Assembly: GCF_000006405.1 (NCBI RefSeq) | Contig: NW_003215602.1 | Span: 140,768-204,767, forward strand | Reading direction: 5' to 3' | Source: Perkinsus marinus ATCC 50983 | Lineage: Eukaryota > Perkinsozoa > Perkinsida > Perkinsidae | Length of the DNA stretch: 64,000 nt | Shown here: piece after piece, positions 32,674 through 49,662 of the stretch | How the letters are laid out: each line of letters opens with the position of its first letter | How positions within the stretch are numbered: position 1 is the first letter of the stretch | Notes under the pieces: model-generated | Told to the model about the DNA's origin: nothing | What the model saw: only the letters and a program-made list of their open reading frames with translations | Database searches by the model: none | Position numbers and translations under genes: made by a program

Positions 32674-33886
32674 TTATAGTATTACCGCTAATGCCAGATG
32701 ATCAGCGCTGATCTCTCGATATTGTGTCCGCATAAACTGAGCTTTAATTGGATACAACGCTTGTATCAGTCGTTCCTTCACCGACGATGAGGAGGAGGTA
32801 CTCACTGCTGGCGGGGCCTCTGAAGAACATACTGCTATAATACCAGCAAGAGGCCAACTCACCGCATTGATCAGAAGGTTCCCCTGTGATCAAGGCGGGC
32901 TTGAATAGCGATACTCGAGTACCCAAAGACTTCAGCACCTCGGAAGTCTCGATTCTGTACCTGACGACCACTTGACACTAGGTGAACTGACACTGCTAGG
33001 GACCATAGACTAGGGCCTCTACTGAAACGTGATATATAAATATGGTAGAATGAGATTTAACAAACATTGCCATGGAATTTGCTCATTATCCGTATCCAAT
33101 GAAACCCAGATGGTGCACACATATCACCGTATTGGTCATCGAGTTTAGAGATATACAATATTGAATGTATTCGTGTGGTAGAGCCCCTTACTCGAGAAGG
33201 CCTTTAGCCTCTCTGAAGTTGCCGGGCATTGCGTCGTCACTAGTCGTCTTGTTGCTGTAATTGGCACTAACGTGGCTCATGAGAGCCACATGGGAAGCGC
33301 CTGAGGGAAGATAATTTCAATGAAGAGGTGCCGGGAGACTACCGAGTTGTTGGGCGGCGGTTTCGGCGAAACTCAAATTGGTAGCGACGTCAAGGCGGAA
33401 GAGGTCTGCAGGGCTTGCTGAACCGTACCTAGTGATGGATTAGAACCCACGACCACATGGTATGGAGATGAGAATCCCACCATTAGACCAATCCGTACCT
33501 GCCTCCTCTAGCTCCAAGAGCGGAGACCGCAAGCTCAGCGCCTGTTCCATACTCCTTCAAAGCGGCCGGCAAATCCGACAAGTCCTCAGCAATGTCAATT
33601 GTTTTCAATTTAGACCTACCATATGGATTCCCTCATACGAGCCCTCCTAGAGTACTTTGCTCCAGCGTTGCCCATCTTAGTGGTGATGAAGTTGTTGAGC
33701 CTCTCAGCATGCCCGGGTCGGCCTATGGAGACCAGCCGGCTACCTACCAATGTGATATATTCACTACGGACCAACTGCTGGCTTACACAAAGGGGACAGG
33801 AGGAAGCTTCGGACTAAGTGGCTTCCAAGGCGGCCCGTCCCACCGATCAGCACTGCTGTGTACTCGCGGTAAAGTGGCGAAGACAT
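32674..33886 (-). CDS. NAD(P)-binding oxidoreductase, HTATIP2/TIP30-like
   Basis: A Rossmann-fold short-chain-type oxidoreductase. The N-terminus YTAVLIGGTGRLGSHLVRSF is the dinucleotide-binding GxxGxxG loop. Next come ERLNNFITTKMG, KTIDIAEDLSDLPAALKEYG and ELAVSALGARGG (equivalent to the family's second-strand and 'CLGT' regions). After a 70-bp intron come SPADLFRLDVATNLSFAETA and SHVALMSHVSANYS. RVSLFKPALITGEPSDQC (the family's 'FRPGLL' region) and AQFMRTQYREISADHLALA complete it. Start chosen at MSSPLYREY; a Met 33 bp upstream (33919) is also possible. A few internal splices (33180-33420 and 33501-33700) are approximate. The intron at 33429-33498 is tRNA-like. Confidence 0.8.
33429..33498 (-). 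other. tRNA-like 70-bp intron flanked by 8-bp direct repeat
   Basis: Read in gene sense, the intron is GTACGG + insert + CACTAG. The insert has an A-box-like TGGTCTAATGG and a B-box-like GGTTCTAATCC about 30 bp apart, as in tRNA genes and tRNA-derived SINEs. The 8-mer CCGTACCT (plus strand) occurs at 33423-33430 and 33493-33500, exactly flanking the insert. It contains AG|GT on the gene strand, so each copy supplies one splice site. Deleting the insert plus one repeat leaves a continuous frame (GGRYGSAS). Stems are degenerate, so it is unlikely to be a working tRNA. Confidence 0.8.
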
Positions 33887-33942: not shown

Positions 33943-35162
33943 ATGGGCGTGCGCTTTTTACACGGACGACGATTTGTAAAGGAGAAGGATTCATTAGGTG
34001 TAGTTTGTTCGCTCATGCTGGGGTTGGAGGATGGTCTCGTCCTACTCCAACAGGCGTGGGACACCTTTTGGCAGGTTGATGTAAGGCATATGCTCGATGG
34101 GTTCATAGTAGACATATGTTGTTCAGCCTGGTGGTCTGGCAAGTTACCCTCTAGTGCCCCCAGTGTCGGTACCCATCCAGCTAGGGATGATGCCGACTGC
34201 TGCTCCTCTAGTGGGAGCTGCTGCTCTTGCGGTAAACAACAGCTTTACTATTGAGTTTTACTATTCCTCTCCAGAGTGGCCTTGGAAGGGACGATGCCAC
34301 CTCGAGGGACTTTTTCGGCGAGGGTGAGTGGCTGCACGTAGAGGTGTTTGTGGCCTGCTTCACCTCGCAGGGCACTTTATATCAACAATCCTATTAAGAT
34401 ATAATCTATATATTTAATTTGAATGGACGCAATAACAGTGGAGTTTCACCCGTTTTACGTGAAGTGGCGTAAAACTCGGTGTAAAACGAGTTTTACTTGC
34501 CTGTAGTAGTCGTGAAATATGTTTTTCACTAGTGTTTTTCATATCACGGTCGTGAAACCTCAGTATATTATATTTGATATAATGGAGTTTCACTTGTTTT
34601 ACGTGAAGTGGCGTAGAACTCGGTGAAAAACGCGATATTCGCGGTGATATGCAGTAGTCGTGAAATATATCTTTCACTGGTGTTTTTAATATCACTAGGG
34701 TGAAATTTCAATATTACATCCTCACCAATTTCAGACAAGTTCCGTCTACAGTCTAGAAATTCTGATTGACTTTCTCTCTCCGCCGGAGAGTCTCCGGTTT
34801 GCCTTTCCAGTGTGGGGATATATGTGTGGTTTTTTCAGTTTGACCGGAGTATGAAAACCCCAATAATTTCCCCAAATTTTCTCGTGATTTTCATTATTTT
34901 ACCTAACACATGTAATTGACTATGTGCACATATTGCCTCCCCTCCAGGTCCCAGGAGGACTTCGTCGTCGAGTAGTGGTGTTGGTCGCGTCGGTGGCGGC
35001 GGCGGCGTGCCAGTGAATATCGCGACCAAGAGTGGTGGATCAATGGAGCCTATGGATGAGGATGAGCACTACCAAGGAGGTCACAAGATCAACTCTGGCA
35101 GATCTAGGAAATTCCTAGAGTATTTATGTCGCCTTATGAACCGACCCCAACCCCACGTGTAG
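33943..35162 (+). CDS. Hypothetical Gly/Pro-rich protein
   Basis: Divergent from the HTATIP2-like gene. Spliceable plus-strand segments are AHAGVGGWSRPTPTGVGHL, then SYPLVPPVSVPIQLGMMP with APLVGAAALA, then SGLGRDDATSRDFFGE. After a long intron carrying two element B copies and one A copy comes RRTSSSSSGVGRVGGGGGVP ... EYLCRLMNRPQPHV and TAG at 35162. The low-complexity style suggests a scaffold or RNA-associated protein, but no domain is recognised. The first exon is uncertain. Confidence 0.4.
34437..34562 (+). mobile_element. Element B copy (first of adjacent pair)
   Basis: Starts AGTGGAGTTTCACCCGTTTT and ends CACGGTCGTGAAACCTCA. It contains an extra GTAAAACGAGTTTTACTTGC segment, a small internal palindrome. 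Confidence 0.8.
34582..34713 (+). mobile_element. Element B copy (second of adjacent pair)
   Basis: Starts ATGGAGTTTCACTTGTTTTA and ends CTAGGGTGAAATTTCA, in tandem with the preceding copy after a 19-bp AT-rich gap (TATTATATTTGATATAA-like). Confidence 0.8.
34810..34945 (-). mobile_element. Element A copy (intron)
   Basis: The ends AGTGTGGGGATATATGTG and GACTATGTGCACATATTGC; the GCACATAT end is within 20 bp of the next exon's acceptor. Confidence 0.65.
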
Positions 35163-37166: not shown

Positions 37167-40032
37167 ATGTCTCCACCAAAGCACAAGGCGTCATTGCATC
37201 ATAACAGCAACGACGAGCTCACTGTATGGTGTACGGACTTCATCAGGCTACTACAAGAGGAGGACGGGGATGGCATTAGGCGCCACTTAGCTGATGCGAA
37301 TACGAGGCTGGGTAGTAGTAATAGTTGGGGAGCATGTCAAGGATTCTAGTTGGTAGTAGTGTCGATAGCTCAAGTCGTGATCTCGGCTGTTGGAGGAGGT
37401 CAATCACTTCTTCGGAACACACGTATTAATGTAATCGTGAGATTTCCTGTGGTTGGACACTTTTATCGTTTTACGTGAAGTGGCGTAATACTCTGTTAAA
37501 AAGGCGATACTCGCGGTGATATGCAGTGGTTGTGAAATATATTTCTCACTGGTGTTTTTCATATCACTAGGGTGAAGTTCCAATATAGGTTCAGACAACT
37601 GCCTGAATAGAGCCGACTCAGCCATTCAGCGTGTGGTCACCACAACTCTGACCAAACAGGGAGCACAGATTTGCATGTGGGGCAAGTTCCTGCAACCTTA
37701 CCTGTTGCATCTCAAGGCCCGACGAAACCATGACTGGGTGAGTAGTGAGGGATACTATCCTCCCCGATTTTGGATTTATCAGGCACTAGCATTGGAGAAT
37801 CTAGTGAGCTCAGTGAGGGCCTACACGGAGCTTTACGTCAACAGTGAGTTGCTGTCCATCATGGAGGAAGTAGGTTGGGGCTTCGACTGGAGTCTATGTT
37901 AGTAGTGCTAGTATTGGAACCTCGCACGATATGAAGGTGAAACCTGGAAGCTCACCCGAATTCCCGAAGGGAATATTCACTGTTTTATTGGTCTGTCAGA
38001 AGTGTTTTTTATTCTTTCTAGTTCTGTGAAATTTAAAGTTATTAAAATCTGTTTTTACCAGCTCTTTATGTGAAGTAGCCCTATAAGCCAAGTCATCTCG
38101 TTGACCGGGTGCTCCCAGTAAAGTCTTAGTCTCCTTTCGTAACACTCTGTGAATTAGTATGTATGCAGGGAGGGTGAATACATCAGTGTTGTTGTTGCAT
38201 CTTGAGAATAATCATCAGCAGAAGTGGAAAAGGAAACGACCTCTCCAGTGAGGTCCGATTCACACATAACTTTGCTATAATTCGTTCCAGCCGGTCTTCG
38301 CTTCACGTCTATTGAGCAAGTCTCAGGCTGGTGGACTTTTTGGCGTGAAAATTGGTATATCAAAAGATTGGAATTTTTTATTTTCAAAGAAGTATTCATA
38401 ACTGGTCAAAAAAGAAAAATTATTTTTGCGTAGTTTCGACTTGCACTGAAGTTTATGAAACTTATTCTCTGGTTTTGTTTTCAGTCCTCAGAAGATCTTC
38501 AAGATGTTTATTTCACCTCTGGTGACTCCTTTGCATGGTTCGTCCCACCCTTCATAGAAGTTACCTCCCAATCACGGCACCTAGCAATATACATGGACAA
38601 CGCCAGTGATCAGCACCGATGGTGTATGAAGATGGTTGAAGTCGCTCGTGAGCTCTTTCCGAAGCTGTTGAAGGAACGTCGGAGGAAAATGACGGGGGCA
38701 TGTTGGCTGTCGAGTGAGCTACTACGACTATTCCAGAGGCTCGATCAAGTTGCACTGTGTGGTCCGATATTGGCGTCGATTCAGCAACAGTATAAGGCGT
38801 ATTTCAAACCTGAGGTGCTGCCTAAGTCGGTCGCTGTAACGCTGTATTTTCACTGGGGGAAGTATTTAGTGACAGAGCAGAAATTTGGTGAAGCTACTGA
38901 GCGGTTGAATTGGGCGTTGGAGAACTGCTGTGAGGAGCATAGGAGTAATAGGAGACGAATTGCACAGTATTTGATACCGTGTAATTTGCTGGCGCGCGGT
39001 TTTCTCCCGAGTGAGAGCATGTTGAGGGAGTACGGCCTGGAGGGGGAGTATGGACGCATACTGCATGCTGTCCGGGTTGGCAATATTAGAGAGTAAAAAT
39101 GCCACTTGTGGGGATCGAACCTGGGACCTCCTTATCAGGTATCAAATCTGCCTCGAGCACAACACTGATGAGTATGTGAAGGCTGGGACGTATATGGTGA
39201 TGGAGAAATTGCTGGTGAGATGACGCTATATCGAGAGATTTGATATCTTGCATCTATTTCAGTTGGTGTTATATAGGAACCTTGCCAAGCGTGTTTACTT
39301 GATAGTAGATCCCGCCTCGTGTGCATATAAACTGGACTTGGAATATTTCGAGATTGGTACGTCGGCCTCGAGTATTACTGGTCCGTTATGGTGTTGATCA
39401 TTAGCCTGGCAAGTTGCCTCTGCTAAGCCCTCGGAAGGTGGCGAGTCCTCCAATGTTAGTGTAGCTAGTAGCTCCCCTATGAGTGTGGAGAGCGAGGATC
39501 ATCAACTACATAGGCCTGATGCTGACGAGGTCCAGTGTGCTCTAGCCGGACTCATATACATACAAGCGATCAAGGTGGGGAGAGGCGTCCTTTGAAATTA
39601 TCATCTTTGTGTCGGAATTGTATCAATGCTATGGTCACTAGTATGTATTTGATAGGACAAGATGAAACAGTCCCACCGTGTGAAGTCGATGGCAATGTGT
39701 GATTCATGCATCAACTGGTGTAAAGCCAAGTGCGACTGAGCTAGCAGAGTCTTTGGAGGAATATATGTTCGCTTTCCTCAGCTGAGCTCAGCAGGGTTTT
39801 ATCATTTACTATAGAAGTTAACATACGGGTAGAAGTGTGCGGAAAACAAGAAAAAATTTCCTGAAATTTTCCGCAAAATTTTCAGTGTCACCAGCACATG
39901 TTGATGGTGATGGTGGAAGAACACACATTCAATATCGTATATCTATTTTAGGGTTACCTGTCGTACGAGCATAAGAAGTTCGTCTTCTCCAAGCAGAATG
40001 CCTTCCCTCCTATCGATAAGTGGAAGTGGTGA
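37167..40032 (+). CDS. PCID2: PCI-domain protein PCID2/THP1 (TREX-2 family)
   Basis: PCID2/Thp1 couples transcription to nuclear mRNA export in the TREX-2 complex. Eight exons join in frame to 469 aa: 37167-37311, 37589-37737, 37783-37869, 38485-39092, 39139-39214, 39263-39356, 39405-39574 and 39952-40032. The PCI core is clear: AVTLYFHWGKYLVTEQKFGEA, RRRIAQYLIPCNLLARGFLP, REYGLEGEYGRILHAVRVGN, MEKLLLVLYRNLAKRVYL, DADEVQCALAGLIYIQAIKG and YEHKKFVFSKQNAFPPIDKW, matching the family's closing motif order. Introns of 45, 46, 48 and 48 bp alternate with long ones. Intron 1 (277 bp, element B) and intron 7 (377 bp, element A) hold elements; no element was recognised in intron 3 (615 bp). A Ser-rich acidic insert lies before the winged-helix part. 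Confidence 0.94.
37457..37586 (+). mobile_element. Element B copy (in PCID2 intron 1)
   Basis: Has TCGTTTTACGTGAAGTGGCG, CGCGGTGATATGCAGTGGTTG and CTAGGGTGAAGTTCCA. It ends 2 bp before the splice acceptor region ATATAG. Confidence 0.8.
39093..39138 (-). other. 46-bp PCID2 intron carrying antisense tRNA 3'-half
   Basis: The intron (plus strand) is framed by GTAAAA and TTATCAG. On the minus strand it contains GGTCCCAGGTTCGATCCCC, a B-box/T-arm-like segment followed by an acceptor-like tail. The splice is fixed by frame (NIR|E|YQICLEHN) and by PCI homology on both sides. The T stem pairs only partly, so this is tRNA-like, not a gene. Confidence 0.6.
39750..39930 (-). mobile_element. Element A copy (in PCID2 intron 7)
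   Basis: GGAGGAATATATGTTCGCTT then CCTCAGCTGAGCTCAGCAG; the far end CACCAGCACATGTTGATGG is diverged. Confidence 0.7.
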
Positions 40033-40453: not shown

Positions 40454-42937
40454 ATGATCTATAATGGATACGGTTTAGTAGTCCGGCAGTGCAGCCCCCC
40501 ACTGTACAGCTCTATACGACGGCACTTCAGTGCTGTACCTAGATTTGACCACTACGCGGAATTGGGTGTTCATCGGCATTCCTCTGATAAGGAGGTTAGA
40601 GAGGCCTATTTAAAGGCTGTGAAACAACACCATCCTGATGCTGGAGGCAACCATGATAAATTCGTTCGAGTGAGAATATCTGTTTTGGGAGGTTGTGCAG
40701 TGAAATTAATAATGGTGAAGTAATTTGTGAGCCGAAATACGACTTCTAGTGTATGCTACGTGTTCGCTTTGGGGGTTAATGTAAGGCACTAGGGGAGCTA
40801 TTTTGGTGGGAAACTTCGGCACCTTGTGGAGCGTTTTTTGACGACTCGGCTAGAGCAGGAAACTCGGAAACCTGATAAAGTGAAATGTGTGTATCGTTGG
40901 TCTCGCATACTCTAAACACTCTCGAGCTATTGCATATGGTGGTGAATCAGGTGCAACAGGCCTATGAACACATTAATAGGGATAAGAAGGATGGCGTGCC
41001 GAAGTCGACAAATACCACATCGTAGCATCTGGCCTGACCCGAAGTCGCTATCCTATATCGATTCATTTCAGGTCTACATCTTCCTCATCATCGTCTTCCT
41101 CCTATTCCTATCCGAATAGTGGTGGCTCTGGGTTCGGTGGCTCTGGAGGCTTTGGCGGCTCAACATGGTGGTGGTCGTCTGGTCGGGGGCGGCCTAAGGG
41201 GGAGGACTTTGCTTTTGATGAAAGGGAGTTTGAAAAGGCATGGAATAAGTAAGCTGCAGACGGCAGCGGCAAATTTCAGTTTGTCGCAATTATGGATGGT
41301 TTTTACGACTAGGCGTATTGTGTGAATATAGTAGTTATGAAAGTATTAGGCCTTCGTAACGATAGGGCGAAGCTCATTCAGTCCACGTCTACTGATTCGA
41401 TCAATGACTTTCACATAGGTCCCCGGTTCGATCCCTGGGTAGGACATTTCCCCGTCATCAAATTTTTTCGTGCATATCTCTTCGTGCTGTTCTCATAATC
41501 GAGTTTTCCGATTTTTCGCGAAGCTTCCGCGTATAGAAGAGTCGTTTGATCTATCTGGTAGTCTCCTACGGTCCGTAGTCAAGCCAGAATAACTCTGCAC
41601 GCACGCACGCACAGCGCGAAAGTGCCTGTTGTTGCGGTATATGCTCCGCTCGCTTCGCTCGCTCCGCAACTTACAACGTACATATCTGTATATTATCACT
41701 TCTCACGATACACTCTATCGAATGATACTTAAAAATTTGCCGAGCATTTATTCCCGAAAATTCACTTCAGAAACCTGTGAATAGAAAAATTTCTAATAGA
41801 AGTACAAGTCTTTTATGAGCACCTTTATCGTTTTCATGAGGAAGCTCAATAGGGTGTTCGACCGAATTTGAGGTGGTGATTGGTGACACCTACTAGCACT
41901 GACTAATTATAATATTACAAATACAGATGTTAACTTATCATTGGTTTCTGTAAGCCTATGGTAGGTTCAAGAGAACTCAGCGTAGACAGGGTAGCGGTCA
42001 ATGGGCTCAGTATTACCAGTCGGACTCTGAGGATGAGGACTACTTTGATGAGAGTGACGAGGAACGCATGTAAGTGTAGATAACACAGATGTGGCAGTGC
42101 AAGGCTCTGGTGTTAGTTTCGAGAGGCGTAGGAATAACAGTCCTAAGGAGCGAAGACGCGAGCGAGAGAGTGCTCGTAGAGCGTACGCTAGATACGCGGA
42201 CGAGGTGACCGCTGGGGTTTGCTCAGGATTATTCATCTTATCCATCTGCTATTCACAGAGAGCCGAAAATGTATATATCTGGGTGCTTGAAAGCACTCTT
42301 AGTTCGTTATTTTATGTTCGTTAACAGAATATGAATCCGCGAGATCGCAAGCCTAAGGCAACAGCAGGGCATTCAGTAGTGGATATAGCAACTGCTCACA
42401 CCTATCACTCGGCGTTGTTGAATGGTAAGCCTCCACAGGCTGCTGTGGGTTCTTGTCTCTGTTTAATAGGGACGTATAAGCGAATTGGAATTTTCAATGG
42501 CCGTCCAGCGTACAGGCGGATATCCGGCAATGAACGATGGCCAGTCTTCCTCTATTACTCTGAAAGGTAAATTCCGTCGGTGTTTTTATCCCATGTAGCT
42601 GATAGTCAAAACTGTTCAGTAGGAGGTTACAACAAACTGTTGGGAATAGCAATGGCGATCACCCTGGGGAAGATAATTTTCATCGTCTTCCACTCGTTGA
42701 ATTTCGAGTTATGCCATTTTTCACGGCTCGCCTATCGCACGCCTTCGGACTTTCTCCCTCGTGAAGTTGATCACTTGAGTATGTTGTGGTAGATTCAATG
42801 ATTGGAAACTGCATTCACAGTTGCGCGATACTAACCTGTGTTATGCCTTCCTGGACGATCCAGAGTGCTCCAACGCTTTCGACCTCATGAAGAGCACCGA
42901 GCCGTGGTTTGTTTTCAATGATCGAAAGCATCGGTAG
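40454..42937 (+). CDS. Mitochondrial-type J-domain (DnaJ) protein with C-terminal extension
   Basis: A J-domain co-chaperone that stimulates Hsp70. The N-terminus is basic and Ser/Arg-rich (LYSSIRRHFSAV), fitting a mitochondrial presequence. The J domain follows: HYAELGVHRHSSDKEVREAY, then the essential HPD in KQHHPDAGG, then VQQAYEHINRDKK. A Ser/Gly-rich linker (GGSGFGGSGGFGGS), an acidic stretch (DSEDEDYFDESDEE) and an Arg-rich helix follow. The C-terminal segment reads HSVVDIATAHTYHSALL ... RIGIFNGRPAYRRISG ... ERFNDWKLHSQLRD ... EPWFVFNDRK. Exons 40454-40669, 40951-41021, 41072-41248, 41965-42069, 42117-42216 (or 42204), 42328-42566 and 42793-42937 join in frame to about 350 aa. The C-terminal domain is not one I can name. 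Confidence 0.85.
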
Positions 42938-44480: not shown

Positions 44481-45670
44481 TCAACGAGGAGTATCATCAT
44501 CCGATATAAATCCCTCGAAAAGGACTTCGTCGGTGCCGTGATCAGACGCGGATGATGAGGATGAGAGCTCGAATAAGAGGTACTCCAACATGGAGGAATT
44601 CAGACTTCCCTCTTTGCTTGATGCCGGAGAGTCGGTGCTTGTGCCTACAATATCACCATGTGAATAGTTCGACAGGTTATGTACACAACCTACAACACCA
44701 ACGACCACAGGTTCAACTCCTGGTAACGGGCTTTTGCATTGAAAAATCACAATACTTCGGGACTGAATAATGCATTGACCATTAGTAGAGTTTGACCAGC
44801 GTGGGAAAATATACGCATGGTCGACTCCATATGTTGGTGACAATAACAGGATTTTGACGAAATTTTGGGAGATTCTCGTTGGTTTCTTGACACTTCTACC
44901 GCAGCTCTCATATAAACTCCTATAGTTGGCGAGGAAACTCCTGAGATCAGCTAAGGAAAGCAAACATATATTCCACTAATACCGAGGTCAACCCGCATAA
45001 TTCCTCGTCGCAAACCCTAGGGTAACGAGGTGAATAACAAGTGTCTCACTTGGTGTGGGAATAGCACTGTCGTCGCCGAGTTCATCAACGCATTTCTTCG
45101 TAAGGGCATCTGCGTTCACTTGGCCCGTGGGGGATATGGCTACTCGCTTAGCAGCCTCTTCCTCGTCGGTGGGTGCTAGTCGAGGCGGTCGAGGGCGGCG
45201 TATAACGAGCTCGGCACCGCGGATCATGCGTCGACGATTACCGCGGTCAATAGGACAATTGGCAGTTCTCTTTTGCCTGAAAAGGGCGATGATCCCTGAA
45301 CACTGATGATCGAGTTTACTGCTTCTCGTCAGAGCACGGCTTAGAAGCTCTTCCGAAGTGCGAGTCGACGGACCGTTCCTAAGAGCAACGTGGGATGACC
45401 TGCACATGCGATGTATTGTTTCCTTACATCGGGTTCGGCACCTTGCGGAACAACTCGATTAGTCGAAATAGAAACAGACATGGTCAAGCAAACGCAACCG
45501 TGATGGAGACTCGACGGCTGAGCACTTAGGCTGGCGATGAGGATTCCCTTAGGCCCTGGCGTTTCTTTGGATAGTCTTGCTCCCATTCTTTGACGAATTT
45601 TCAAGTTTTCTAACGGTAATAGCGCACGCCCGGTGTGCCGTGTTTCCACAATTATCTCTAAGGAATTCAT
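44481..45670 (-). CDS. Hypothetical protein with acidic Ser-rich C-terminus
   Basis: Minus-strand open segments: the start MNSLEIIVETRHTGRALLPL with ENLKIRQRMGARLSKETPGP near 45670-45540; a middle exon with LVIRRPRPPRLAPTDEEEAA and DALTKKCVDELGDDSAIPTP (45030-45330); an element A intron; and a tail SLNSSMLEYLLFELSSSSSA ending DDDTPR and a stop at 44481. Splices between them are plausible but not individually proven. No family recognised. Confidence 0.4.
44801..44978 (+). mobile_element. Element A copy (likely intron)
   Basis: Long, well-conserved copy: GCGTGGGAAAATATACGCATG, CATATGTTGGTGACAATAAC, GAGGAAACTCCTGAGATCAGC and GCAAACATATATTCC. Confidence 0.8.
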
Positions 45671-46783
45671 TCTAGTGGCTTTCTTCAGCTCATGGAGATC
45701 TTAATGATAATGGGAGGATCTCACTCCTCGTTGTATCACAGATAGCAATATACCATAATGCATATCCCAATGCAGTTGCATTCTATAGAGTGCACTATGA
45801 CTGGTGAAAGCCACCACCATCGCCATGGACACGCGTTGGTTGGATTTGAAAAAACAAATTAGTATGATTTTTGCTCTGTTTGGGAGGCTGAGTCCTCATC
45901 CCTTTAATTGTGTCACTTCCTAGATGGGCGGATAATACTCTCCTTACGTCTACAGTAAGTATGTGTACTATGACTCGATGGTAAGTACCTCCCCTGCCAT
46001 CCCCACGCAGTAGTAGTAGTGACATCGCAACTGTTCCCAGCCTTACGTGGCGTTCCGGCAACCTATCGTGGTTCGTCGCCAGTGCTGTAGCTCCAACAGA
46101 GGCCATTGGTAGCAGTGTTAGAATATATGTTGGCTCTCAATCGGTCCATATAATCTGTGCGTCACCTCGACAGGTTACCTGTGCGTGGGGCCCACTATCG
46201 GGCATCGATCGAACTACATAGTGGAGCGGTGGTCGGCAAGTGCGCCTTCAGGCATCTACCTAAGGAATAACGTTGAACCTTTATATAGCTCGTGCATTGA
46301 TGATGTCATTTTCAGATGAGGTTTGCAGACCATGAATTTAGGGTCCCTAGCGCTCTTCTGTATTTGCCCTACTATATAGGCCAACGAGTTCCCAGCATTG
46401 ACCGACGGGGATTCGAACCCGGGACCTCTAGGATGATGCAATATCTTCCTCAGACGGTGGACAATTCGACAACTTCTGTATTGCCTGACGCCTTTCCCAG
46501 CTGATCTCAGAAAGCTCAGTATCGTGCGATCCGCTTAGTATTTCGAATGTTGTGTTATCAATGACCGATTCATGCAACTGAAACGGAACTCTATCATAAA
46601 GTTGCTCCTGGATGAATTCCAACGCCTTATGCTTTGTAACGACAAGCTTTATTTCACCGACCGAGCCTTTTGTCCATCCGAAATACTCTGTACTTTGAGT
46701 TGGTCTATGGGTGTATAATATAAATGATAGAAATAATTGACGTGAAACGCTGCTATAGTTTTTCCGTGGTCTCCATCATCATC
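45671..46783. other. Mostly unassigned; short minus-strand frame and B-box-like site
   Basis: A 64-codon minus frame at 46428-46622 (EFIQEQLYDRVPFQLHESV ... LSEISWERRQAIQKL) could be one exon. Next to it, at 46395-46425, the minus strand reads GAGGTCCCGGGTTCGAATCC, a tRNA T-arm-like segment without a matching 5' half. A 23-bp element A tip is at about 46122. Confidence 0.35.
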
Positions 46784-48677: not shown

Positions 48678-49112
48678 CTGTGTTACTTTGTAGATCTCAT
48701 GGTGTCTTACTCATCTCTATCTCGATTTGAATTCCCGATTTCAGCAATGCAAGTGGTGTTTGAATTCATATGTGAATGATCATCCTAGCTCTTATATTGA
48801 GATCGAATAAAAGGGCCCACGCATTGAAATCTCCCAGCGTATGTGAATATCAGACAAACTCAGGCATCATTTCAAAGATCTCGACGAGGTCTATCCTGTG
48901 GTAGTTGAATCAATTGCATACTCTTCATACTAGACAAGGTATGACGACATGGAGAAAGGTGTATATAGGGAAACGTGCTGGCAGATTCCATTTCGGGAGT
49001 GTTTCCGTCTATCGATCATCCAACTTAGCGATATGCAACGATGTTTCATCAATGATGAAAACACTTGCACTCGCACTTCGGAAGAGGTTCTAAGCCGTGC
49101 TCTGATGAATCA

Positions 49113-49662
49113 TCATTTGGCTTAGGAACGGTAAACCTGGTTGGGGCGCCTATGCCATCGTGGGGCCAACTTAGCGATATGCAACGATATTTCATCATCT
49201 AACTTAGGAACGGTAAACCTGGTTGGGGCGCCTATGCCATCGTGGGGCCAACTTAGCGATATGCAACGATATTTCATCATCTAACTTAGGAACGGTAAAC
49301 CTTGTTGGGGCGCCTATGCCATCGTGGGGCCAACTTAGCGATATGCAACGATATTTCATCATCTAACTTAGGAACGGTAAACCTTGTTGGGGCGCCTATG
49401 CCATCGTGGGTCCAACTTAGCGATATGCAACGATATTTCATCATTTGGCTTTGGAACGGTAAACCTTGTTGGGGCGCCTATGCCATCGTGGGGCCAACTT
49501 AGCGATATGCAACGATATTTCATCATTTGGCTTTGGAACGGTAAACCTTGTTGGGGCGCCTATGCCATCGTGGGTCCAACTTAGCGATATGCAACGATAT
49601 TTCATCATTTGGCTTTGGAACGGTAAACCTTGTTGGGGCGCCTATGCCATCTCTGCGAACAC
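49113..49662. repeat. 82-bp tandem repeat, seven copies
   Basis: The segment GAACGGTAAACCTKGTTGGG starts at about 49127 and recurs every 82 bp to 49619. Copies differ at few sites. The early copies carry CATCTAACTTAGG where the late ones have CATTTGGCTTTGG, and single-base variants alternate (GGGGCC/GGGTCC). A degenerate half-unit lies at about 49015. The period is not a multiple of three, so it is not a coding repeat. Confidence 0.95.

What the first reader, a model, noticed from the sequence alone, without database searches (positions are those of the whole stretch)
33423..33500. A tRNA-like insert with 8-bp target duplication has become an intron
Inside the HTATIP2-like gene, a 70-bp intron is a tRNA-like sequence (A-box-like TGGTCTAATGG, B-box-like GGTTCTAATCC) flanked by the perfect direct repeat CCGTACCT. 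On the gene strand the repeat holds AG|GT, so one copy gives the donor GT and the other the acceptor AG. Removing the insert plus one copy restores an open frame (GGRYGSAS). That is the signature expected if a tRNA-derived mobile element created an intron on insertion (introner-type birth), here from a tRNA/SINE source rather than a DNA transposon.
Basis: partly seen in the sequence, partly recalled or inferred. Interest (0 to 1): 0.85.

Follow-up and report, generated by a model that had tools for sequence, protein, structure and literature searches.

The report
Intron born from a tRNA-like insert
In an oyster parasite's gene, a 70-base intron looks like a decayed transfer-RNA sequence that landed in the coding region, duplicated 8 bases of its target and is cut out of the message using those duplicated bases, a rarely seen snapshot of how a new intron can arise.

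Summary
In the Perkinsus marinus gene annotated Pmar_PMAR027615 (minus strand), a 70-nt GT-AG intron (33429-33498) lies between two perfect AGGTACGG copies. The public protein models omit exactly this stretch; excision restores a frame conserved in P. olseni and P. chesapeaki. A second gene copy carries the same intron, and the coding sequence is under constraint (pN/pS 0.17). The intron is tRNA-like along its length: exact A and B boxes, paired D arm, best match tRNA-Gly; 0 of 3,973 random 70-mers match a tRNA as well. Rfam and ARAGORN do not call it a tRNA; a model of this genome's tRNAs gives E = 0.16. The genome is rich in tRNA-type T arms (GGTTCGATCCC 924 versus 5), so a source exists. 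The insert was found only in the two gene copies, so it is not shown to be an introner or SINE family; it is a single tRNA-derived insertion that works like an introner birth. A second intron (39093-39138, PCID2-like gene) overlaps an antisense tRNA 3'-half-like stretch. No intron-less allele and no RNA-seq could be examined. Rice CatA (p-SINE1-like intron) is a precedent.

The parts
33429..33498 (-). 70-nt GT-AG intron (GTACGG...CACTAG)
   Evidence: absent from public protein models P0001 and P0004
33493..33500 (-). donor-side copy of the 8-bp direct repeat AGGTACGG (AG|GTACGG)
   Evidence: in the second gene copy the intronic part reads GTATGG, so this copy differs there
33423..33430 (-). 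acceptor/exon-side copy of the repeat; exon part encodes R-Y-G, conserved as RYG in P. olseni and RYN in P. chesapeaki
33431..33492 (-). 62-nt tRNA-like insert between the repeats
33480..33490 (-). A-box-like TGGTCTAATGG within a D arm whose stem pairs in the model alignment
33437..33447 (-). B-box/T-loop GGTTCTAATCC; a T stands where the 13 aligned P. marinus tRNAs have G or A, which creates CTAAT 11 nt from the intron end
33191..33886 (-). first five exons of the NAD(P)-binding (epimerase-like) gene, ATG at 33886, end of exon 5 approximate; introns of 43, 40, 70 and 42 nt
39093..39138 (+). 46-nt intron of a PCID2-like gene that holds a tRNA 3'-half-like stretch in antisense

Best explanation
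A tRNA-derived sequence of about 62 bp (a decayed tRNA, tRNA fragment or tRNA-headed SINE) was inserted into the exon sequence AGGTACGG, and the 8-bp target was duplicated. The AG|GT in the upstream copy became the 5' splice site and the AG in the downstream copy the 3' splice site, so the spliceosome removes the insert plus one repeat and the protein is unchanged. Shown: the sequence anatomy, the frame, the conserved spliced protein, constraint in both gene copies, and a significant tRNA-likeness. Inferred: the order of events, the staggered cut, splicing in vivo, and the guess that the T loop (changed to TTCTAAT) serves as branch point.
For: Intron and element share the same borders, leaving no room for an older intron. 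Public models of both copies omit it, and orthologous proteins run through the junction without a gap. pN/pS is 0.17 between copies. tRNA-likeness: best score 37 against tRNA-Gly, 0 of 1000 dinucleotide shuffles, 0 of 3,973 two-strand random 70-mers, the SINE at 41.4 kb, the PCID2 intron, the insert and tRNA-Ser dropped beforehand. With a model of 13 P. marinus tRNAs it is rank 4 of 20 matches in 64 kb, aligned over positions 1-73, 11.7 bits, E 0.16. A/B-box pair 84 versus 0 genome-wide. Source material is abundant (924 versus 5, tRNA genes and SINEs included; a SINE at 41.4 kb with at least 30 further places). The other four introns examined have junction repeats of only 2-3 bp. The insert does not resemble its own flanks, so a tandem duplication is not the source.
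Against: ARAGORN and Rfam do not see a tRNA. The insert was found only in the two syntenic gene copies (a word-based search that reaches near relatives only). Its own B box GGTTCTAATCC is at chance frequency (16 versus 14). Two of the 84 A/B-pair hits look like coding sequence, so such pairs can arise without a tRNA. In the model alignment 4 of 5 anticodon-stem pairs and 2 acceptor pairs fail, the T stem needs a 2-nt insertion, and part of the acceptor match comes from the repeat itself, since GTAC is a palindrome. Given AG|GT at both ends, an 8-bp repeat is not rare. With fewer places masked and 10 tRNA-like heads added to the references, 2 of 2,987 random windows scored as high. No intron-less allele and no RNA data were seen.
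Confidence: 0.62

Rival explanations
1. A tRNA fragment or its cDNA was captured as filler during repair of a staggered double-strand break; the 8-bp repeat comes from filling in the overhangs. Same outcome (new intron), but no mobile element. This is a route within the best explanation rather than its opposite.
For: One locus found, no tail; truncated acceptor end; PMC3443670 lists break repair as an intron-gain route (passages seen).
Against: The genome has tRNA-headed SINEs that could supply a mobile source.
Confidence: 0.4
2. The tRNA-like element was inserted into an intron that was already there.
For: The gene has other short introns of 40-43 nt; SINEs often sit in introns (general knowledge).
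Against: Nothing of the intron lies outside the element plus its repeat; the repeats coincide with the splice sites.
Confidence: 0.12
3. Chance: an ordinary intron that happens to resemble a tRNA and to have matching ends.
For: B box alone not enriched; model E-value only 0.16; 8-bp junction repeats occur in several of the 184 chance AG|GT pairs; A/B pairs also occur in what looks like coding sequence.
Against: Joint coincidence of whole-length tRNA match, exact A/B boxes and border-matched repeat.
Confidence: 0.18
4. A full-length tRNA-like sequence was inserted without target duplication; its acceptor stem contains the palindrome GTAC, which mimics a direct repeat.
For: In the model alignment 5' GTAC pairs with 3' GTAC.
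Against: The exon-side copy encodes RYG, which is RYG in P. olseni and RYN in P. chesapeaki, so it looks like ancestral exon; the repeat extends beyond GTAC on both sides.
Confidence: 0.06
5. Both gene copies are broken by an unspliced insertion.
For: No RNA evidence was available here.
Against: pN/pS 0.17, the one exon length change is 3 bases, public models and orthologues agree.
Confidence: 0.02

Closest known systems
p-SINE1-like intron of rice CatA catalase (Iwamoto et al. 1998, 1999; titles seen only in reference lists; details recalled)
   Same: A tRNA-derived short retroelement forms an intron in a coding gene.
   Different: There it belongs to a known SINE family in plants (recalled); here a 62-bp element found at one duplicated gene in an alveolate, co-terminal with the intron.
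Introners (PMC9860276: passages and section 7 seen)
   Same: Some families show 3-9 bp target duplications; in some both splice sites come from the insertion site; mostly the spliced message is unchanged.
   Different: Introners are families (5 to over 2,000 copies per genome), many with DNA-transposon features (49 of 130 families with TSDs, 72 of 177 with TIRs); SINE, tRNA and Perkinsus do not occur in its main text. Here one locus and a tRNA-like body.
Introner elements of Amoebophrya (PMC7789003: passages seen)
   Same: Direct repeats at intron borders in a relative of dinoflagellates.
   Different: Those repeats are 3-5 nt, with inverted repeats of 8-20 nt and largely non-canonical splice sites; here canonical GT-AG, 8 bp, and insert ends that match as inverted repeats at only 6 of 12 places.
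tRNA-derived SINEs (here the 41.4-kb family)
   Same: B-box-bearing tRNA-like head, same genome.
   Different: The insert has no tail, no body beyond the tRNA-like part and no other copies found.

Membership tests
Introner | Occupies a spliceosomal intron in a coding gene | tested here: met
   (sequence and protein evidence only, no RNA)
Introner | Target duplication supplies splice sites | tested here: met
   AGGTACGG on both sides
Introner | Many similar copies in many genes | tested here: not met
   DNA search of the whole assembly finds 2 places, both in the duplicated gene; distant relatives would be missed
Introner | Presence/absence between close relatives | not testable with these tools
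   the genome 'has no relatives here'; no DNA of other Perkinsus was found
tRNA-derived SINE | Pol III A and B boxes with tRNA spacing | tested here: met
   one T-loop base deviates
tRNA-derived SINE | Target-site duplication | tested here: met
   8 bp
tRNA-derived SINE | 3' tail or LINE-related end | tested here: not met
   insert ends CCATCACT directly before the repeat; LINE ends were not searched
tRNA-derived SINE | Dispersed multi-copy family | tested here: not met
tRNA gene | Recognised cloverleaf (ARAGORN, Rfam RF00005) | tested here: not met
   own model R1 E 0.16 with most of the anticodon stem unpaired

The most novel reading that the evidence does not exclude
Perkinsus marinus gains introns recurrently from tRNA-derived sequences, in both orientations. 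Besides this sense insert, the 46-nt intron of the PCID2-like gene in the same window is largely an antisense tRNA 3'-half-like stretch (a TTTTTAC end read backwards gives the donor GTAAAAA). The genome holds hundreds of tRNA-type T arms, so tRNA/SINE debris may be a standing source of new introns in this lineage.
Probability: 0.2. Interest if true: 0.8.

Novelty: new variant of a known kind. Interest (0 to 1): 0.5.

Why it matters
How new introns arise is a long-standing question with few clear single events. Here element borders, repeat and splice sites coincide, so one comparison with another Perkinsus genome would date the event and test the 'insertion into AGGT' model with a tRNA-derived rather than DNA-transposon donor. 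If recurrent, it would add a tRNA-derived source to intron gain in alveolates.

Tried and rejected
Rfam and ARAGORN on the insert: no call. RNA fold of the intron plus repeat: not more stable than shuffles (z -0.28, 68 of 200 fold at least as well). Relatives of the insert in the genome: none found beyond the two gene copies. 'The insert is unusually conserved between the copies' (2 of 70 differences against pS 0.155): rejected, because 34% of 70-nt windows in the region have 2 or fewer differences. My first gene model used a 25-nt first intron; orthologues and public models show 43 nt, so the protein letters used hold a few wrong residues at that junction (hence 95% identity), which does not touch the intron in question. 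My note calls the second gene SMYD-like; it is PCID2-like. Other T-arm-like places in the window are not all introns: 46399-46459 lies just after a stop codon, 44703-44722 may be coding, 41387-41446 is a SINE. Of the 84 A/B-pair hits I looked at few outside tRNA genes; L090, L095 and L096 showed no intron or clear repeat by eye, and L097 and L098 lie in an open frame. L021 had an antisense T arm between AGGT sites but no convincing gene model. Tandem duplication as origin: the insert is no more like its own flanks than like other stretches (471 of 482 score as high).

Full report
Setting. The window is G000:C321:140768-204767 of a 54.5-Mb, 347-contig assembly. The gene's product matches Pmar_PMAR027615 of Perkinsus marinus ATCC 50983, with homologues in P. 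olseni and P. chesapeaki (95% identity because my first query held a few wrong residues at the first junction). P. marinus is a parasite of oysters (general knowledge); only description was done here.

Observation. CCGTACCT occurs at 33423-33430 and 33493-33500 with 62 bases between. On the gene strand the intron is GTACGGATTGG...CACTAG, 70 nt, 33429-33498, between AGGCAG|GTACGG and CACTAG|GTACGG. Spliced, the frame reads SALGARGGRYGSASPADL; unspliced it meets a stop five codons past the junction codon (GGRYGLV*) in both gene copies. The public protein models P0001 (this copy) and P0004 (216 aa, from the 26,517-base contig) run through this junction, as do P0002, P0003 and P0005 from the other species, as GARGGRYG or GARGGRYN. 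Whether those species have an intron there cannot be seen from proteins.

Second copy. A copy with 93% identity over 2,332 aligned positions lies on contig C145 with the same intron. Four of six other stretches of the window recur there in the same order, so C145 is an alternative haplotype or a segmental duplicate. Over the first five exons pS is 0.155 and pN 0.027, ratio 0.17; the one length change in an exon is 3 bases, the one in an intron 1 base. The gene is under constraint in both copies, hence the insert must be removed from the message. In the C145 copy the intronic repeat reads GTATGG while the exonic one is still GTACGG, as expected if only the exon copy codes.

tRNA-likeness. Among 57 distinct tRNA sequences that ARAGORN found in the held loci, plus 10 tRNA-like heads, the best match is tRNA-Gly(TCC), score 37; 0 of 1000 dinucleotide shuffles and 2 of 2,987 random windows reach it. 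Against the tRNAs alone, on both strands, with the SINE at 41.4 kb, the PCID2 intron, the insert and the tRNA-Ser gene left out before sampling, 0 of 3,973 reach 37 (maximum 35). A step-20 scan of the window with 14 tRNA representatives puts the insert (36) after the tRNA-Ser gene and just above two T-arm-like places (35 and 34). Exact A and B boxes at tRNA spacing occur twice in the window (the insert and tRNA-Ser) and once in 300 Markov sequences of the same length. In the whole genome GTCTARNGG..GGTTCNANNCC gives 84 matches, many of them tRNA genes, and its reversed control 0; but 2 of the 84, one duplicated place on C196, lie in a 104-aa open frame and are probably not tRNA-derived. Against: ARAGORN and Rfam are silent, and the insert's own B box GGTTCTAATCC is no more common than its reversed control (16 versus 14). 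A covariance model of 13 P. marinus tRNAs aligns the whole intron (33498-33424, positions 1-73) at 11.7 bits, E 0.16 for 64 kb: the D stem pairs, the T stem pairs with a 2-nt insertion, 4 of 5 anticodon-stem pairs fail, and the acceptor stem is formed partly by the palindrome GTAC of the repeat. I read it as tRNA-derived but decayed.

The repeat. Among 184 AG|GT..AG|GT pairs 30-120 bases apart, 12 have runs of 8 or more bases: the present intron, six in an 82-bp tandem array, one in a 29-bp repeat and four others. So the octamer alone is weak evidence; its exact coincidence with the ends of the tRNA-like body is what counts. The other three introns of the gene and the PCID2 intron have 2-3 bp.

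Source. The genome is rich in tRNA-type sequence: GGTTCGATCCC occurs 924 times, tRNA genes and SINEs included, against 5 for the control. A SINE at 41.4 kb with a T arm (GGTCCCCGGTTCGATCCC) has at least 30 further places at 82-92% identity besides C145 (40 of 95 candidates were scored); ten fetched copies align over the element and diverge upstream of it. In the window GGTTCNANNCC occurs 11 times against 2.5 in Markov sequences. The insert itself has no other relatives found. It therefore fails the multi-copy criterion for an introner or SINE family, but it works like an introner birth.

A second tRNA-like intron. The + strand gene with an ORF at 38455-39096 aligns to human PCID2 across a 46-nt intron at 39093-39138 (E 1.4e-12; frame). 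Its reverse complement is a tRNA 3'-half-like stretch, best match tRNA-Val, score 30; 7 of 3,979 random 46-mers do as well, the SINE not being masked in that run. The model match 39151-39100 has E 0.65 and runs 13 bases beyond the intron. It lacks a target repeat (3 bp). This is suggestive, not proof, of recurrence.

Mechanism. Insertion at AGGTACGG with duplication makes AG|GT on both sides; the upstream GT and downstream AG become splice sites. This is the insertion-into-AGGT model described in PMC3443670 (passages) and one of the splice-site routes listed for introners in PMC9860276 (section 7). The T-loop change to TTCTAAT creates CTAAT 11 nt from the intron end; none of the other four introns has a YTRAY site, so a branch-point role is only a guess.

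Literature. Searches for SINE- or tRNA-derived introns or introners and for Perkinsus with SINE or introns listed no such report for Perkinsus; the listings were capped, and subscription papers are not held, so this is no proof of absence. The rice CatA p-SINE1-like intron (title seen in a reference list) is the closest precedent. PMC11782384 (abstract) reports that direct repeats near splice sites are common, which again cautions against leaning on the repeat alone.

Verdict. An ordinary-looking GT-AG intron that most likely began as a tRNA-derived insertion; new variant of a known kind; the timing and the recurrence are open.

Noticed in passing
window 39093-39138 (+): 46-nt intron of a PCID2-like gene is largely an antisense tRNA 3'-half-like stretch.
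   Followed up: partly
window about 41357-41560 (+): Member of a tRNA-headed SINE family (starts ...TAGGCCTTCGT, T arm GGTCCCCGGTTCGATCCC) with at least 30 further places in the genome.
   Followed up: partly
whole genome G000: GGTTCGATCCC (tRNA T arm) 924 times versus 5 in the reversed control; the share in introns is unknown.
   Followed up: partly
window 46399-46459 (-): tRNA-3'-half-like sequence directly after a stop codon (frame ...EEDIASS*), possibly a SINE-supplied gene end.
   Followed up: partly
window 49110-49651: 82-bp tandem array, 6.6 copies, 97% matches, with AGGT in its units; next to a 20-bp array from 49736 to at least 50000.
   Followed up: no
contig C145 (26,517 bp): Syntenic second copy of the 33-45 kb part of the window at 91-99% identity in the stretches matched; haplotype or duplicate.
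   Followed up: partly
G000:C292 and C48: Tandem arrays of tRNA-like repeats: His-type about every 157 bp on C292 (type read by me from the sequence) and tRNA-Gln (CTG) about every 134 bp on C48.
   Followed up: no
G000:C196:78981-79032 and 85307-85358: A/B-box pairs inside a 104-aa open frame in two similar copies; a coding look-alike of a tRNA promoter.
   Followed up: partly
window 34430-34600: Repeated motifs of the kind GTTTTAC/GTAAAAC and GTGAAAC/GTTTCAC near the gene (by eye).
   Followed up: no
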